From NCBI GenBank assembly GCA_963576565.1, contig OY755038.1, forward strand, positions 140,794,206 through 140,858,205: 64,000 nt of DNA, in the 5' to 3' direction. The notes beneath the pieces were generated by a model. It worked only from the letters and a program-made list of their open reading frames with translations, was not told the DNA's origin and did no database searches. This DNA comes from Aspidapion aeneum. Taxonomy: Eukaryota; Arthropoda; Insecta; Coleoptera; Brentidae. Numbering within the stretch: position 1 is the first letter of the stretch; each line of letters starts with the position of its first letter. This document shows positions 1-14,343 of the stretch, piece after piece. A program made the translations under genes and the position numbers.

Positions 1-371
1 TAACCTGGGGTAACAAAGGCTGTATATTCTTTTGATGACTCTTCCATTTCCACTTGCCAATATCCACTAAATAAATCTAGAGTTGAAAAATATTTAGAGT
101 CTCCAAAGTAAGTTAACATTTCTTCTATATTACTTAATGAATAACTTGATTTTTTTGTAAAAAGGTTAATTTTTGAATAATTTACACAAAATCTTGTTTT
201 TTCCTCCCCTTGATCCCCCTTTTTCTTTACTAGGACAATAGGGCTGGAAAACGGTGAACTTGAAGGCCGAATTATATTGGCATCTAACATTTCGTTTACC
301 TGTTTTTCAATTATTTCTCTCTCTTTTGGGAAAACTTTATACGGTTTACTCCTGAATGGCTTGTTTAGCTC
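1..371 (-). pseudogene. reverse transcriptase N-terminal portion (Ty3/gypsy)
   Basis: The minus-strand frame from 371 to 1 is open throughout and in frame with the linker across the TAG at 372-374. It shows the RT fingers (SSPIVLVKKKGD), the RFCVNYSKIN block equivalent to the RxxVDYR motif, and motif A as FSTLDLFSGYWQVEM, which contains the first catalytic Asp. The YxDD box would lie beyond the window. These motifs assign the element to Ty3/gypsy rather than to BEL/Pao or Ty1/copia. Confidence 0.85.
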
Positions 372-856
372 CTATGTTTCTTGAGTCTGTTGAAAAACAT
401 CGCTGTATTGTTTGATTAACTGCTTAAGTTGCATTTCCTCGCTTTTTGTTAATTCAGCACCCATTTTGTACAAGCTTTCCAATAACGTTTCTTCACTCGG
501 CCCTTTTTTAATTATGAATAACTCCTTTTTAAGACAATTATCTTCTTTTAAAAATGCAATAGTAGTTCCTTTATACACCATCTGCGGTAAACTCGAACTG
601 TTTATTATTGAAACCATGTCTTTTCTTTGCACTCCTGTAATGGTGGTTGTAAAAATTTTCCTCTTTTTACCAAAAATTCTTCATTTGGACAAAATACATT
701 TTTAAGTGGCCGCTGTTCCTTATTTTGTATGGACACAGTAAACTTTTTCTCCTCGAATGGCATTAAAAAATCTGTTTGTGACACACAAACTTTAGAGTAC
801 CTACACTGATTATCTTCATACAGTTTCTCTTGTTGAACGTAAAACATCTCTTCCAA
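372..856 (-). pseudogene. protease-to-RT linker of the same retrotransposon
   Basis: Two open frames (605-856 and 372-632) overlap by a frameshift near 610. Together they read as the beta-rich segment that usually precedes gypsy reverse transcriptase, with VYKGTTIAFLKED in the place of the family's KGTxIA-like strand, followed by a helical segment ending LIKQYSDVFQQ, typical of the boundary just upstream of RT. A TAG at 372-374 then interrupts an otherwise open frame that runs directly into the RT. No catalytic role is expected. Confidence 0.65.
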
Positions 857-899
857 GTTCTTTCTTTTAACTGCTTGACTTTTGTCTTCATCTAAGAAA

Positions 900-1327
900 T
901 TGAGTCTTTCAATTAACTCATAGTGCCCATTTTTTGGTCTCCACTAAATAGCAGGTTTACAGTATTGGCGTGATCCTTCGTGACTATCAAAATTGGCTTT
1001 TTTCTTAAAATTTCGGAAAGATTCTTTTTTCAGAAACGAAAATTTTTAGTTAATATGGTATATTACTCCCAAAGCTATGCATTCCACATAGGTCCCATAA
1101 ACGCCATCTTTCTTAATATTTCTGCAATATTCTTCTTTAGAATGGTATATTATTTTATCTGAGGTAAGGCTTTCTTCAAAAATATATGGTTGAAATTTTT
1201 CCCAGTTTTTTAAAATATGCCCTGACGTAGCGCTTCTCAAAAGTCTGTGTTTTTCCTGAGTTTTAAATAAAGCAAGACTAACAGCGCGGTATAAACAGTT
1301 TCCATCTTTTTTAATTTTGTATTTTTC
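900..1327 (-). pseudogene. OTU-family cysteine protease domain inside retrotransposon pol
   Basis: In the frame adjoining the macro domain, minus-strand codons 1306-1295 give DGNC, the OTU catalytic-cysteine motif (Cys codon 1297-1295), continuing CLYRAVSLALF. About 45 residues later comes KKDGVYGTYVECIALGVIY, which matches the OTU helix that follows the GxWG-like turn. In the same frame GHYEL (His codon 925-923) supplies the C-terminal catalytic histidine. Two stops interrupt the frame: TAA at 1046-1048 and TAG at 944-946. OTU proteases cleave ubiquitin or ubiquitin-like proteins. Here the domain lies between the macro domain and the RT linker. A role in polyprotein processing or in removing host ubiquitin are both possible; neither is shown. 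Confidence 0.75.
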
Positions 1328-1380
1328 ATAATTTTATTTTTATGTAATAGCCGTTTTTCTTTTTGTGCCTTTTCTTTTTG

Positions 1381-1800
1381 AGGGTTAAACGTGTATACTA
1401 ATATTTCTATCTCTATTTTCTTGAAAATAAACAAAATCATATTTTTAACGATGCTCCATTCCAAACCATCTAAGCCGCAACCCATTCTCGAAATCGCCAG
1501 TTTATTAACTTTATGCAGTTTGATCTGATTACGTAATTTAATAAATGCGTACCATAATATTTCATAACTTGGCTTGCCAAAAAATCTTTCTTTTATTACT
1601 AAATAATAGATAAAACGACTTTTTTATTTAAAAATGCAAGTCCCTGTTAATTGGTTTTGATTCACCAATTTATCAATGTCTCCAAAGTTATTTCTAAAAT
1701 GTAAAGCTATTCCCCTCGACATGACCATGTCTTCCGACACACAATGAGCCAGAGGGTACTGCGAGTCAGATGTAAATATGTCCTTATATTGCTCCCAAAT
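1381..1800 (-). pseudogene. macro domain of TARG1/OARD1 type inside retrotransposon pol
   Basis: Read on the minus strand from 1800 to 1381, one frame holds the hallmarks of the ALC1-like/TARG1 (OARD1) macro-domain class. LAHCVSED lies at 1752-1729, followed by MSRGIALHFRNNFG. Further on come FIYYLVIKERFFGKPSYE and ISRMGCGLDGLEW, then a terminal strand ending VYTF. In the family these segments line the ADP-ribose pocket, and the enzymes remove ADP-ribose from proteins or small molecules. A single in-frame TAA (1624-1626) interrupts the frame between the two halves. The N-terminal strand appears to lie in another frame beyond 1800. The domain sits between protease and OTU domain, in the same direction as gag-pol. 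Family assignment is by motif recognition only; activity is unproven and this copy is broken. Confidence 0.75.
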
Positions 1801-1895
1801 TTAATTTTTAAGTTTCGTTTTGTAAATTTATAATTACTTTGTTGAAACTGCTCAAAGCTCTCTGTTCCTTTATTTGCAAGCTGGCTTTTTGTTGT

Positions 1896-2372
1896 TTACA
1901 TAAATTCTTTATTTTTTAAATCTACTAAATTGCAAACCTTAGATTTCATCTGCAAAAATACTTGCATTTTTTCGTCACTACCCCCATTAATTAAAGACTT
2001 CTTTTGAAAATTAAATTTTTTTGATTGAATAAACTTTCTATTTTTTGAGTCAACTAATTCGCTTACCCTAGACTTAAATTTTAAAAATCTGTTCAAGCTC
2101 TCCTTGTGATTAAGAGTTTTGCGGCAATTATTCATATTTTTTGGGTACCTATTTTTTAACTTATTATTTAAAAACGGCTTAGAGTACAGCGTTTGCCTAC
2201 CATTTTTAAAAATCCCGTCTTTCATATTATGTGATTGTCTACTGAACTTACTGCTTCTTTGAATGTGTGGGGGCAGAGTATGTCTCTGCGCATTTTGTTG
2301 CGACATACGATTATGAGAATCTCTTGTAAATAAACAGTTGTTTTTTAAATTTTGATTTAAAGTTGATACCAC
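1896..2372 (-). pseudogene. basic linker segment of gag-pol, function unknown
   Basis: A 158-codon open frame lies between the protease and the macro domain. It is rich in Lys, Asn, Ser and Gln with many Arg/His and no recognisable fold or motif. It contains an approximate internal repeat: the segment around FKSRVSELVDSKNRKFIQ recurs about 40 residues later as MKSKVCNLVDLKNKEFM. Position suggests it belongs to the polyprotein, either as a spacer or a nucleic-acid-binding segment. I do not recognise the family. Confidence 0.45.
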
Positions 2373-2432
2373 TGTTTTTGTTGTTTGTTCTAATTTTTGA
2401 AAATTAATAAGTACTCTATGTGACAGAAGAAA

Positions 2433-3038
2433 TTATATCCCCAAAATGATGTCTACCGATAGCTGACTGGCCACCAAGGCCTCGCAAGAAGTCTTTAAAT
2501 TACCTATGTTTAAGAGTAATTTAGTTTTTCCAAGGAGCGGTATTTTTGCACCCCCTACCCCTATTAAATGATTTGTGATAGAGCCCCCTTCGTAGTTTTC
2601 CAAAAAATTCAAATTTACAATATTTTCGCTTGACCCAGTATCAATAACAATTTCTGACCATTTGTAATTTACAAAACCCCCAATCCTTAAAATGTTTCCA
2701 TGAGGTCCCATATTAAAAGTGCTTAAAGGGGTTAATTCTGACCTTGCTTCCTTATAATAATTAAAAGAACTGACTGGGGCATTATCGATTATTTTTGAAA
2801 ACTTTTGAAAATCGCTTAAGTCACATATTTCTTTAGAACAAGTTAACCAATTGAAGTGATATTTATTTATATCTAACAACCCCTTTTCAAAGTAGTATTT
2901 AAAATCATTAATGTCAAAATTAGGGTAAATTTCCCTGTAAAGAGACTGTAATTCATAAAAATAGGCAATCACAGACTCGTCATGTGACTGGTTAAAATGT
3001 GCAAGTCTTTTGCTCAAACATTTTCGGTAAGCTTTCAA
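2433..3038 (-). pseudogene. gag C-terminal part and retropepsin-type aspartic protease
   Basis: The open frame has about 201 codons. Residues 1-100 continue gag (motif ESVIAYFYELQSL, in the position of the gag homology region). Residues near 130-201 form a retropepsin: the active-site segment IVIDTGSSENIV holds the catalytic Asp in D-T-G-S-S, followed by a GVGGAKIPLLG flap-like segment and a C-terminal VDIILGI block that matches the usual ILG motif before the domain end. The protease core is therefore intact in its key residues. The frame ends at 2433, just after the ILG block. It is expected to cleave the element's own polyprotein. Confidence 0.8.
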
Positions 3039-3327
3039 AAAATTCCGTTAAAAAATCTTCTTTGACTTGATCCCAACTTTTACTAAGGTTTTGTATATTT
3101 TTTGCGTAAATTTTAAACCATTTAAGTGAGGCACCCCCTAAAAAATTTCTGAAATAAAATAGTTTGTAAAAAATGGTCCATCTATTTTGGTGAGCCACTT
3201 GTTCGTAATGCTTTAAAAACCCTTTGGCACTTATACTTTGAAAGGGGTAAAAAGTACAAGGTGATTTATAGTGAGGTAAAATGGCACATTTGTCACTCGC
3301 AAGTGACGTCCTAATTGTTACCTGCAT
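2992..3327 (-). pseudogene. gag, N-terminal part (retrotransposon, minus strand)
   Basis: An open stretch of about 110 codons begins with an ATG at 3327. The protein has the spacing of a gypsy capsid domain: a tryptophan and aromatic-rich helix region followed by the segment GGASLKWF and then SWDQVKEDFL, which resembles the retrotransposon gag signature of ASxWF and W..L...F. It ends by a frameshift near 3030. The next frame (2433-3038) continues the gag-like pattern, so the two were one frame in the parent element. No zinc knuckle is visible here. Assignment to gag rests on position upstream of a protease and on this signature. Confidence 0.7.
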
Positions 3328-4067
3328 ATTTTTTTTTATATCGTAGTTAATTTTTTGACGCCCAGTATACCAATCAGCTGTTTTAGAATTAATTTAAATT
3401 TAACGAAACTAGAATAAATTCCTGTAATAAAATATGTATGGTAATTTACCTTTCGCAACTACACACAAACAAACAAACGTAACTATTTTTTTTTCAAATT
3501 TACAATAAAAATCTTCTTTTTTCCTGAAAACCAACATGTACTTATTTAATTTAAGATGAACTCTATAAACAAACAATACTTCTGAGACTACAGTGACAAA
3601 TTAAAAATGTATGTGAAAAATCATTAAAAACTAACAAACTTGTAAATATTGACGAATTTACTAAAGGCAATCGATACAAAACGGCGACCTCCACCACTTT
3701 TGTCGTGATTTATTTTATCCGCAGGCTTAAAACCTAATTTTTGCTCCTAAACGGATTAAAAAATAGATTTTATCCCCGATAAAAGAAATCAACAACTATT
3801 TCCCTTTGGGGGGTAAACTCAGATGGAAGGTAAGCCAACAAGAGGTCGAACCAGTCTTCTTTAATGATTACCCTCGCAAGCGATTGTTATGTCAAGGAAA
3901 CTACCATCAATTCTACTTGCGTAAGTAACCCCGGAAACTGGTTTCCCTCCTTAATCAGTTTTTTTTATATTTTAAAGGTTTTTATTTCTAGCAAGCGATA
4001 AATGTTGTACATGTTGGAATGAAAAATAATTAAAGCTAACCTAACCTTGTCTGTGTACCCTGAACCA
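3328..4067. other. leader/possible LTR region of the minus-strand retrotransposon; no gene
   Basis: This is AT-rich DNA upstream of the gag start. By position it should contain the 5' leader and LTR of the element at 1-3327, but with no second LTR in the window its limits cannot be fixed. No open frame or conserved motif was recognised. Confidence 0.3.
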
Positions 4068-5556
4068 GGGCTATCAAAATGGACGGGCCACGATCCTCCA
4101 CTTTGTTGACGTCACATCCGGGGCTGATTTTTTTTTGATGGTCACGTTACGACACAGCTGATTGTCTTTAAAATAATGAAGTTGGAATGACAGTTCATGA
4201 ATATTTGATTTTTTTTTAAATAAAGCCGTTTTTGAGATTGTTTTTACTTTATTCTGGCAGAACAATTTTTTTTTTAATGTATGGTTATCTCTAATTTTTC
4301 ATAGCCGCTTCACTAGCTCACACAAAAATTAAGTTTAAAGCAGAAGCGAATGTGACAATCACATATGACAAAGTCAAATACATGTCAAATATAACAGTTG
4401 GCATGTCGTACATGGCGGGTAATTTGAATTCAAAATAAGGAATGCTAAATCTTGAAGATTTTAACCTTTTAATCATGTTGCTTCCTTACAAACCTTTGGT
4501 GGAATATCGGGATGGTGTCTGAGCATATTTCACTGAAATTTTGCAGAAATCTGTAGTGCCATTTTGAAAATATCATGAAAAAACATCTGACCTCCCATAA
4601 GACCCAATGTAAAATTCAGCCCCGGGAGAACAGCTGATTTTTTCAGGGTCGTGGCCTCTATTTTTGTGTTGGCCTTGCCTGAACTAATAATATTAAATAC
4701 TGCTTACATTAATAAACTTGGAGGGAGCACTTTCGGCTCCCATCACATGTAACTTTCACCAAACCCAAAAAAACTCTCCCGTCGAAGCTCCCATTTGCAC
4801 TGTCCTCGATTTAATTTTATTATTAAATCAAGCACTGTTTTTGTAAGCTTACAACTGCTTATGAAATTGACTATACAGGGTGCTTCATAACAATATTCTC
4901 ATTGATCTTCTTATTGCATCCATTTCGACACTTTCCATTTGGATTTTATCATTTAAACTAATGGAAATATGTCATGACGTAACCGCCAAAATAAAAAAAA
5001 ATTAACTATATATGTAACGCGCTATACATTTCGCACTGTCGTTTGACCCCATGTTGACCTTTTAGGTCTAAGGAACAATTGTGCAAAGTTTGTTGCTTTT
5101 ATCACAAAACGAGACTTTGATTTGTTTAGCTTTACAACTATAAACAATGAATTTTGGCTAACATAACTGTAGATATTTTCATAAAATTTTGTTCTGCAGT
5201 GTAACAGGAATTAACCCTTTAAATCGATTTTGTCATATTTTAGATGATCTACCTGATCACTATAGCTCTAATCTTACTCACGTAAATTTGAGACGAGAGT
5301 AAGCTCTAAGTTTCCCTTATACAATCCTAAAAATGCAAAAAGTTTTTGCGCTTTAACACACAAAGTACTAACAAAATGTATCTTTTTTAGGTGGAACACC
5401 AGCTACTGCAGGCTATCTAACGCAAGGTTCAAGCAACACTCAGTCATTTGTTAATCCTCCCCCAATTAACAAACAATCGGAGGAAAGAAATTTTGACACT
5501 TTTTAATTTTAGTTTCCATTATTATTTTAGTGATATTTAAACCTATTGTTTTTTTA
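4068..5556. other. no gene seen; possible TIR element remnant 4068-4673
   Basis: Around 4075-4097 and, inverted, 4640-4662 there is a loose match (CAAAAT...GGCCACGATCCT against CAAAAATAGAGGCCACGACCCT) that could be the ends of a 600-bp non-autonomous element. TATACAGGGTGCTTCATAAC near 4873 resembles the outer end of another short TIR element. Nothing coding was recognised. Confidence 0.3.
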
Positions 5557-13124: not shown

Positions 13125-14343
13125 TTGTCTGTCAAACCCATACCAAGTGTTCACAATATTTTGAATTTCAATACCAATGAAGACCAATTCATTGATAAAA
13201 TCGACCTTATTAAAAATCAATTAAGACTGGAACATCTAAATTACGAAGAAAAAGAACTAATTTCAAATCTTTGTTTTGAATTTTCTGAAACCAACAATGC
13301 TCATCCATTTTTTACTAACTCATATCGGTACCGTCAAATACACAAAGAGGAAGTAAAAACACAAATTAATAAAATGCTCGATCAGAAAATAATCCGTCCA
13401 TCAATTTCCCAGTGGTCATCACCTGTTTGGGTAGTCCCAAAAAAATCTTGACGCCTCTAACAAACAAAAATGGAGAGTAGTAATCGATTATAGAAAACTG
13501 AATGAAGTAACAGTTGACGATAAATATCCACTTCCAAATATTTCAGATTTATTAGATCAGTTAGGTAAATGTCAATATTTTACAACACTTGATTTAGCAC
13601 CCGGTTTTCACCAAATTGAAATTGATCAAAAAGATATTTAAAAAACAGCCTTTTCTGTCGAAAATGGACACTACGAATTTGTTCGTATGCCATTTGGTTT
13701 AAATAATTCACCCTCCACATTTCAACGTGTGATGGGTAACATTCTATTAGGCTTTCTAAATGAACGTTGTTTAGTTTATATGGACGACATTATTGTTTAT
13801 TCACCAACAATTCATGAACACATTTCACGTCTTTCCGAAGTTTTCCAAAGATTACGAAAATCAAATTTAAAAATTCAACCTGACAAATGCCAGTTTTTAC
13901 GAAAAGAAGTAGCATACCTCGGACATTTAAATACCGAAAATGGCCTAAAACCAAACCCTGATAAAGTAAAATGTATTCAAAACTTTCCAGATTTAAAAAA
14001 TCCTCGTGACGTAACATCATTTCTCGGACTTGCCGGATATTATCGAAGATTCATACCGAACTTCGCGAAAATCTCAAAACCCTTAACAAAACTTCTTCAA
14101 AAAGTTACAAAATTTATTTTTTCTAACGAATGTAAAGAAGCTTTCGAAACACTTGAAAATGCAATAATTTCTGATCCAATATTAATCTATCCAAATTTCG
14201 AAGAACCCTTCATTTTAACTATAGACGCGAGCGCATTTGCGATAGGAGCCGTACTTTCACAAGGTCCAATTGGTAAAGACCTTCCGATAGCTTTTGCATC
14301 GAGAACCCTTTGTAGTGCAGAAACTAAATACTCCACTATGTAA
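13125..14343 (+). pseudogene. reverse transcriptase and start of RNase H (gypsy)
   Basis: RT begins in the frame 13125-13451 ([14 protein letters not shown]), shifts frame near 13450, then continues [28 protein letters not shown] (motif A) and, after a TAA at 13639-13641, MPFGLNNSPSTFQRVM and VYMDDIIVYS (YMDD at 13777-13788). The connection region GLAGYYRRFIPNFA and the RNase H start FILTIDASAFAIGAVLSQ follow. The frame ends at YSTM then TAA at 14341. Just after, the RNase H pattern resumes in another frame (FTIVTDHRPLTW, about 14378-14413), so roughly 30 bp seem to be missing at this junction. Catalytic Asp residues are kept; the copy is dead through frame damage. Confidence 0.85.

What the first reader, a model, noticed from the sequence alone, without database searches (positions are those of the whole stretch)
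900..1800. Ty3/gypsy-type pol carrying both a TARG1-like macro domain and an OTU protease
Seen: between an intact D-T-G-S-S protease core and gypsy RT, the minus strand encodes LAHCVSED...ISRMGCGLDGLEW (TARG1/OARD1-type macro domain) followed by DGNCLYRAVS...GVYGTYVEC...GHYEL (OTU cysteine protease with Cys and His). Known: these two folds remove ADP-ribose and ubiquitin, both used in host DNA damage and antiviral signalling. Inferred: the parent retrotransposon encoded its own pair of reversal enzymes, perhaps to counter host modification of its particles or cDNA, or to process its polyprotein. The joint presence in one LTR element is unusual.
Basis: partly seen in the sequence, partly recalled or inferred. 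Interest (0 to 1): 0.9.

Follow-up and report, generated by a model that had tools for sequence, protein, structure and literature searches.

The report
Retrotransposon with ADP-ribose and ubiquitin erasers
A decayed gypsy-type jumping element carries remnants of two enzymes that remove ADP-ribose and ubiquitin, and related elements in the same genome keep the pair with its active-site residues, which suggests the element once used it to shield itself from the host cell.

Summary
The minus strand of window 1-4892 is a decayed, LTR-bounded Ty3/gypsy element. Between its protease and RT lie a TARG1-type macro domain (1794-1369) and an OTU cysteine protease (1324-914), both broken in this copy. 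OTU scores 8.3e-12 in Pfam. The macro of relative L003 matches human TARG1 at 1.9e-29; Pfam's Macro model misses the window's macro pieces.

The pair recurs in three diverged families of the same genome: 28 of 55 macro rows paired had an OTU within 3 kb downstream. The TARG1 dyad (K84/D125) is kept in 19 of 19 macros aligned. OTU Cys and His stand 128 residues apart in at least one copy of each family. Copy L037 has both whole domains in one open frame.

TARG1-like macros sit at three places in Ty3 pol: protease/RT (with or without OTU), RNase H/integrase (an abundant family, env found in the one copy scanned), and after integrase. Ten paper searches listed no such report that I saw.

Most likely these are Pol-borne enzymes stripping ADP-ribose and ubiquitin from the element's replication complex; that function is inferred.

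The parts
3697..4892 (-). 5' LTR, beginning TGTTATGAAG; carries a 612-bp insert at 4066-4677
   Evidence: Matches the 3' LTR at C1:140785914-140786468; K2P 0.025 over 562 aligned bases
2992..3393 (-). gag (capsid) fragment
   Evidence: Pfam Retrotrans_gag E=1.7e-4, 22.2 bits, curated cutoff 24.1
2433..3047 (-). aspartic protease frame with DTGSS
   Evidence: Motif read directly; no protease match in Pfam for this copy; relatives match aspartic protease models
1896..2432 (-). lysine/asparagine-rich spacer frame between protease and macro
   Evidence: Open frame of 178 aa, no significant family match
1369..1794 (-). TARG1-type macro domain, one in-frame stop
   Evidence: Profile hit; relative L003 against TARG1 4j5r 1.9e-29; K84 and D125 positions kept
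914..1324 (-). OTU cysteine protease, frame-broken; Cys codon near 1297, His codon near 925
   Evidence: Pfam OTU 8.3e-12; DGNC and GHYEL 378 nt apart
3..371 (-). N-terminal part of Ty3-type reverse transcriptase; the element runs off the window to about C1:140785914
   Evidence: Pfam RVT_1 3.2e-7; 3' LTR found outside the window

Best explanation
This is a dead copy of a Ty3/gypsy (Metaviridae) family whose pol gained two extra enzymes between protease and RT: a TARG1-type ADP-ribosyl hydrolase and an OTU deubiquitinase. Inferred mechanism: both are made as part of Pol, cut out or left tethered by the element's protease, and carried in the particle with RT and integrase. There the macro domain removes ADP-ribose put on the element's proteins or on free cDNA ends by host PARPs, and the OTU removes ubiquitin from the same complex, so that it is neither modified nor degraded before integration. 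Shown: domain identity, place, recurrence and catalytic residues; near-saturated silent sites in the macro beside far fewer amino-acid changes. Inferred: enzymatic activity, packaging, substrates and benefit to the element.
For: OTU above the Pfam cutoff in 9 of 9 relative pieces scanned, all chosen because they hit the OTU search (a tenth, with stops, was dropped). Macro against TARG1: 1.9e-29, 5.5e-28 and 1.3e-33 for families A, B, E. K84/D125 kept in 19 of 19 rows aligned, human TARG1 included, and in 15 of 15 family A copies. OTU Cys-His distance 384 nt in L031 (A), L037 (B), L036, L038, L039 (D). Between families A, B, D: macro pS 0.73-0.84, pN 0.27-0.43; OTU pS 0.58-0.93, pN 0.24-0.41 over 36 pairs. 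28 of 55 macro rows have an OTU within 3 kb downstream on the same strand. TARG1 cleaves Glu/Asp-linked ADP-ribose and ADP-ribose on nucleic-acid ends (PMC7050489, passages). Mobile elements, many of them gypsy-type, tend to be up in parp-1 mutant flies (PMC7712786, passages).
Against: No activity is tested. Of 15 family A copies, all but L031 and the partial L032 show a stop or frame-disturbing gap in the macro-OTU stretch against L031, and L031's own 440-aa frame stops before the OTU His. Outside L031, family A copies show Cys-His distances of 378-385 nt, often out of frame, or no match, and L026 359; family D copies L025 and L028 give 352 and 388. L043 has lost the OTU Asp. Within family A, shared changes give omega 0.72 (macro) and 0.45 (OTU) against 1.06 and 0.86 for singletons, neither significant (Fisher p 0.54, 0.32), so selection is not shown within the family. 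The macro tree rejects A, B, D as one clade (p-AU 0.006). Families F and G have no detected OTU, so the pair is not obligatory. In the fly study many gypsy changes did not pass the FDR, and its authors allow an indirect cause. Host Deltex: search unanswered; host PARPs: not searched.
Confidence: 0.5

Rival explanations
1. The macro domain is mainly a reader: it binds ADP-ribose to bring the element's replication complex to PARP-marked, broken or open chromatin, helping integration; the OTU is a separate add-on.
For: In the errantivirus-like family the macro sits directly before integrase, and in P0009 it is at the very end of the protein, after integrase (macro place; integrase place by eye), as targeting domains such as chromodomains do (recalled).
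Against: The hydrolase dyad K84/D125 is kept in 19 of 19 rows; a pure reader would not need both. In A, B, D, F, G it lies before RT, far from integrase.
Confidence: 0.2
2. The OTU is a second polyprotein-processing protease, and the macro is its structural neighbour, as papain-like or OTU proteases process polyproteins of some plus-strand RNA viruses (recalled).
For: The OTU sits inside Pol between macro and RT, and its Cys and His are kept in copies of three families.
Against: An aspartic protease is present just upstream, which should suffice; family F has no detected OTU yet keeps a 1525-aa open pol frame.
Confidence: 0.12
3. The two domains are captured host sequence carried along without function.
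For: Family A singletons accumulate at near-neutral ratios.
Against: Families whose macros have near-saturated silent sites keep both active sites; 34 of the 150 rows, counted by eye, are 1444-1446-aa open frames with the macro.
Confidence: 0.06

Closest known systems
TARG1/OARD1 (C6orf130), ALC1-like macrodomain hydrolase
   Same: Element macros of this genome are 34-45% identical to human TARG1; those of A, B, D 40-42%; Lys84 and Asp125 kept
   Different: Encoded inside a retrotransposon pol. A 2020 review calls TARG1 the only hydrolytically active ALC1-like member in animals (PMC7050489, passages)
OTU-bearing transposons: Ginger1 DNA transposons, Helitrons
   Same: OTU domain inside a transposon protein (PMC2836005, passages; PMC6431247, passages)
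   Different: Those are DNA transposons, and the term macro does not occur in either paper's main text; here it is a Ty3 LTR element with the OTU next to a macro domain
Macrodomains of coronaviruses, togaviruses and hepeviruses
   Same: Virus-encoded ADP-ribosyl hydrolases; coronavirus nsp3 also joins a macro and a deubiquitinase (the second part recalled)
   Different: Those are MacroD-type (PMC7050489, section 12); these are TARG1-type, in reverse-transcribing elements
dUTPase domains of gypsy elements and retroviruses
   Same: An accessory enzyme lodged between protease and RT (PMC6431247, passages); the RNase H/integrase place in some lentiviruses is recalled
   Different: Different enzyme; macros occupy the same kind of slot

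Membership tests
TARG1-type (ALC1-like) macrodomain | Sequence homology over the whole domain | tested here: met
   L003, L037, L051 against 4j5r/4j5q: 1.9e-29, 5.5e-28, 1.3e-33
TARG1-type (ALC1-like) macrodomain | Catalytic Lys84/Asp125 dyad | tested here: met
   19 of 19 aligned rows; residue numbers from PMC9411070 passages
TARG1-type (ALC1-like) macrodomain | ADP-ribosyl hydrolase activity | not testable with these tools
   Needs an assay; no structure was predicted either
OTU cysteine protease | Pfam OTU above curated cutoff | tested here: met
   Window 46.2 bits against 23.3; 9 of 9 relative pieces scanned
OTU cysteine protease | Catalytic Asp, Cys and His | tested here: met
   DGNC and GHxEL 384 nt apart in L031 and L036-L039; window 378 nt. 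L031 has a stop between them; L043 lacks the Asp; in L034, L035, L040 and L022 no GHxEL was found at that distance
OTU cysteine protease | Deubiquitinase activity | not testable with these tools
   Needs an assay
Ty3/gypsy (Metaviridae) | LTRs bounding the element | tested here: met
   Window element: LTR pair, K2P 0.025, polypurine tract before the 3' LTR by eye. No clear target-site duplication seen. Self-comparison of 17 loci of 9.9 kb found no LTR pairs, nor did L037's outer flanks
Ty3/gypsy (Metaviridae) | Order protease-RT-RNase H-integrase | tested here: met
   L037 (family B) has protease, RT, RNase H and integrase in order, in several frames; L040 (A) has integrase downstream of RT. 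The window itself ends in RT

The most novel reading that the evidence does not exclude
The adjacent macro and OTU act together as a two-step eraser of the composite mark in which ubiquitin is joined by an ester to mono-ADP-ribose on Glu/Asp (MARUbylation): the OTU removes the ubiquitin chain and the macro removes the ADP-ribose anchor. This would be a natural fused eraser for that mark, the first I know of, and would imply that the host uses the mark against retroelements.
Probability: 0.15. Interest if true: 0.95.

Novelty: new variant of a known kind. Interest (0 to 1): 0.8.

Why it matters
As far as I know, evidence that ADP-ribosylation is a front between hosts and genomic retroelements is thin. 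TARG1-type hydrolases lodged at three places in Ty3 pol, in an abundant family with long open frames, and next to a deubiquitinase in three families, point to pressure from host ADP-ribosylation. That makes the question directly testable with single purified domains. It also gives a natural macro-OTU fusion against which the newly described ADP-ribose/ubiquitin ester mark can be tested.

Tried and rejected
Pfam Macro for the window pieces: no match; replaced by PDB sequence search. L018 upstream of OTU against PDB: only weak, repeat-like matches to designed proteins; no macro was found in that copy. Viral contigs with L037 and L051 pol pieces: nothing confirmed. First protein search (L037): one protein of unknown context, P0001. 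Within-family selection test: inconclusive. The OTU in the 1171-aa frame of L042 belongs to another element kind, with RVT_1 and zinc fingers; L041's OTU stretch is identical to it, L041 itself was not scanned. Chance or assembly chimera: rejected, since the pair recurs at many places. Host TARG1 gene: the best-scoring rows with human TARG1 are element-like frames, and none was verified as a host gene. Host Deltex: not completed; host PARPs: not searched. Structure prediction: not used, because its stated rule does not list loci from the genome search and the window copy is broken.

Full report
The element. The window begins inside a minus-strand Ty3/gypsy element. Its 5' LTR is at 4892-3697, with a 612-bp insert; its 3' LTR lies outside the window at C1:140785914-140786468. 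The LTRs differ by K2P 0.025 over 562 aligned bases. By eye a polypurine tract precedes the 3' LTR; no clear target-site duplication was found. Between the LTRs come gag (22.2 bits against a curated cutoff of 24.1), a frame with DTGSS, a spacer, macro, OTU and RT.

The two domains. OTU is plain: 8.3e-12 in Pfam, and it scored above cutoff in 9 of 9 relative pieces scanned, all chosen from OTU hits. Pfam's Macro model misses the window's macro pieces. The relative L003/L031, 89% identical there, has macro and most of OTU in a 440-aa open frame, and its macro matches human TARG1 in PDB at 1.9e-29. L037, 39% identical to L031 in the macro, matches at 5.5e-28. The TARG1 dyad Lys84/Asp125 (PMC9411070 passages; PMC7050489 passages, print the second as Glu125) is kept in 15 of 15 family A copies and in 19 of 19 diverse rows, human TARG1 included. 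The 19 leave out near-duplicates (L054, L056) and truncated copies. In one search I first read these columns one place off; one search corrects it.

Relatives with both domains. One search scored 150 of 261 macro candidates. I transcribed 55 of those rows, leaving out mostly the abundant 37%-identical group, and 34 of the 150 OTU rows. Of the 55, 28 have an OTU within 3 kb downstream on the same strand (two of these rows are one copy); two more have one at 8.8 kb and 16.9 kb; 25 have none in the list within 25 kb. They fall in three families: A (the window's), B (L037, L022) and D (L036, L039 and others). Macro identity is 36-39% between A and B or D, and 54-57% between B and D. In the macro, silent differences are near saturation (pS 0.73-0.84) while pN is 0.27-0.43. 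In the OTU pS is 0.58-0.93 and pN 0.24-0.41 over 36 between-family pairs.

OTU active site. Cys and His stand 128 residues apart in L031, L036, L037, L038 and L039. The window and L032 give 378 nt; other family A copies give 381-385 nt, partly out of frame, 359 (L026), or no match (L034, L035, L040). L022 (B) gives no match, and L025 and L028 (D) give 352 and 388 nt. The Cys is kept in 15 of 15 family A copies and the Asp in 14.

How whole are they? L037 has macro and complete OTU in one 740-aa open frame that runs into RT, where the frame ends; its protease is in another frame. L031's 440-aa frame stops before the OTU His. In C1:127319790 the macro shares a 1084-aa open frame with the first part of an OTU, after which the OTU changes frame. 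I saw no copy with gag, protease, macro, OTU and RT in a single frame. Family A copies are decayed: singletons show omega 1.06 (macro) and 0.86 (OTU), shared changes 0.72 and 0.45, a difference that is not significant.

A wider pattern. Family F (L053) has protease, macro and RT in one open stretch of 777 aa, part of a 1525-aa frame, with no detected OTU; here Pfam Macro passes its cutoff (27.8 against 22). Family G (L055) is similar, with RT in the next frame. Family E is the abundant group. The one copy scanned (L052/L051) has RT, RNase H, then the macro (4j5q, 1.3e-33), then integrase in a 1446-aa frame, with a Baculo_F envelope frame overlapping: an errantivirus-like layout. Of the 150 rows, 34 are open frames of 1444-1446 aa without a stop in the match (counted by eye); the others of these were not scanned for env. 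In other records P0006, P0008 and P0010 carry the macro between RNase H and integrase, P0007 between a protease-like start and RT, and P0009 after integrase (Pfam lists; macro places; RT places of P0006, P0007, P0009; the other places by eye). Named beetle records P0002 (Rhamnusium bicolor) and P0003 (Pyrocoelia pectoralis) hold close macros (51% and 45%); the host is thus probably a beetle, which no call shows directly. P0003's start resembles an integrase end (by eye).

Origins. In the RT tree (9 rows, B a partial one) A, B, D, F, G group together (85/88), apart from E and P0006 (100/98). Two places in two pol lineages suggest at least two gains or transfers. The macro tree is weak: A, B, D as one clade are rejected (p-AU 0.006), but not with L057 added (0.117); all element macros as one clade is not rejected (0.098; 0.246 without P0010). 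These groups were named after a first tree had been seen, which the test warns about, and human TARG1 was the only sure cellular row. The number of captures is open.

Mechanism. Shown: identity, place, recurrence, conserved active sites. Inferred: activity, packaging with Pol, and removal of ADP-ribose and ubiquitin from the replication complex. Papers: TARG1 cleaves Glu/Asp-linked ADP-ribose and ADP-ribose at nucleic-acid ends (PMC7050489 passages). In parp-1 mutant flies mobile elements tend to be up, many of them gypsy-type, though many changes did not pass the FDR and the cause may be indirect (PMC7712786 passages). The boldest reading rests on MARUbylation: ubiquitin is ester-linked to ADP-ribose on Glu/Asp in human cells, TARG released it from PARP10, and the chain is K11-linked and cut by the OTU enzyme Cezanne (PMC12000418, abstract and passages). 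Nothing here shows that the host uses this mark.

Known or new? OTU is known in Ginger1 and Helitron elements (PMC2836005 passages; PMC6431247 passages). dUTPase is known between protease and RT of gypsy elements. Viral macrodomains are described as MacroD-type (PMC7050489 section 12). None of my ten paper searches listed a paper that I could see reporting a macro domain in an LTR element, or an OTU in a Ty3 element. Most listings were read as titles and abstract starts only, and the library lacks most subscription papers and all bioRxiv preprints. Hence: new variant of a known kind.

Noticed in passing
window 4066-4677: 612-bp insert in the 5' LTR, flanked by TTCAGG on both sides and absent from the 3' LTR; its ends look like imperfect inverted repeats by eye.
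   Followed up: partly
window 13305-13653: A second Ty3-type RT fragment on the plus strand, 37-44% identical to the first.
   Followed up: no
L041, L042 (C10:47684059, C4:63153147): Frames of 1189 and 1171 aa with OTU at the start; L042 also has zinc fingers and an RVT_1 domain, perhaps a LINE carrying an OTU.
   Followed up: partly
L036:4032-5218: The linker between macro and OTU is a tandem array of 66/69-nt units, lysine- and asparagine-rich.
   Followed up: partly
L038:5418-9899 (C4:54683917-54688398): A 1494-aa frame lies between macro and OTU of a family D copy; by eye it looks like a BEL/Pao element inserted there.
   Followed up: no
C3:79614677-79820584: Cluster of truncated family A copies, some in direct succession.
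   Followed up: no
C9:16412571-16412975; C14:41923-42303; C45:184415-184795: Short open frames 44-47% identical to human TARG1; possible host TARG1 genes.
   Followed up: no
P0004, P0005: Macro proteins of about 490 aa; P0004 has a weak second macro-like stretch (4e-5).
   Followed up: no
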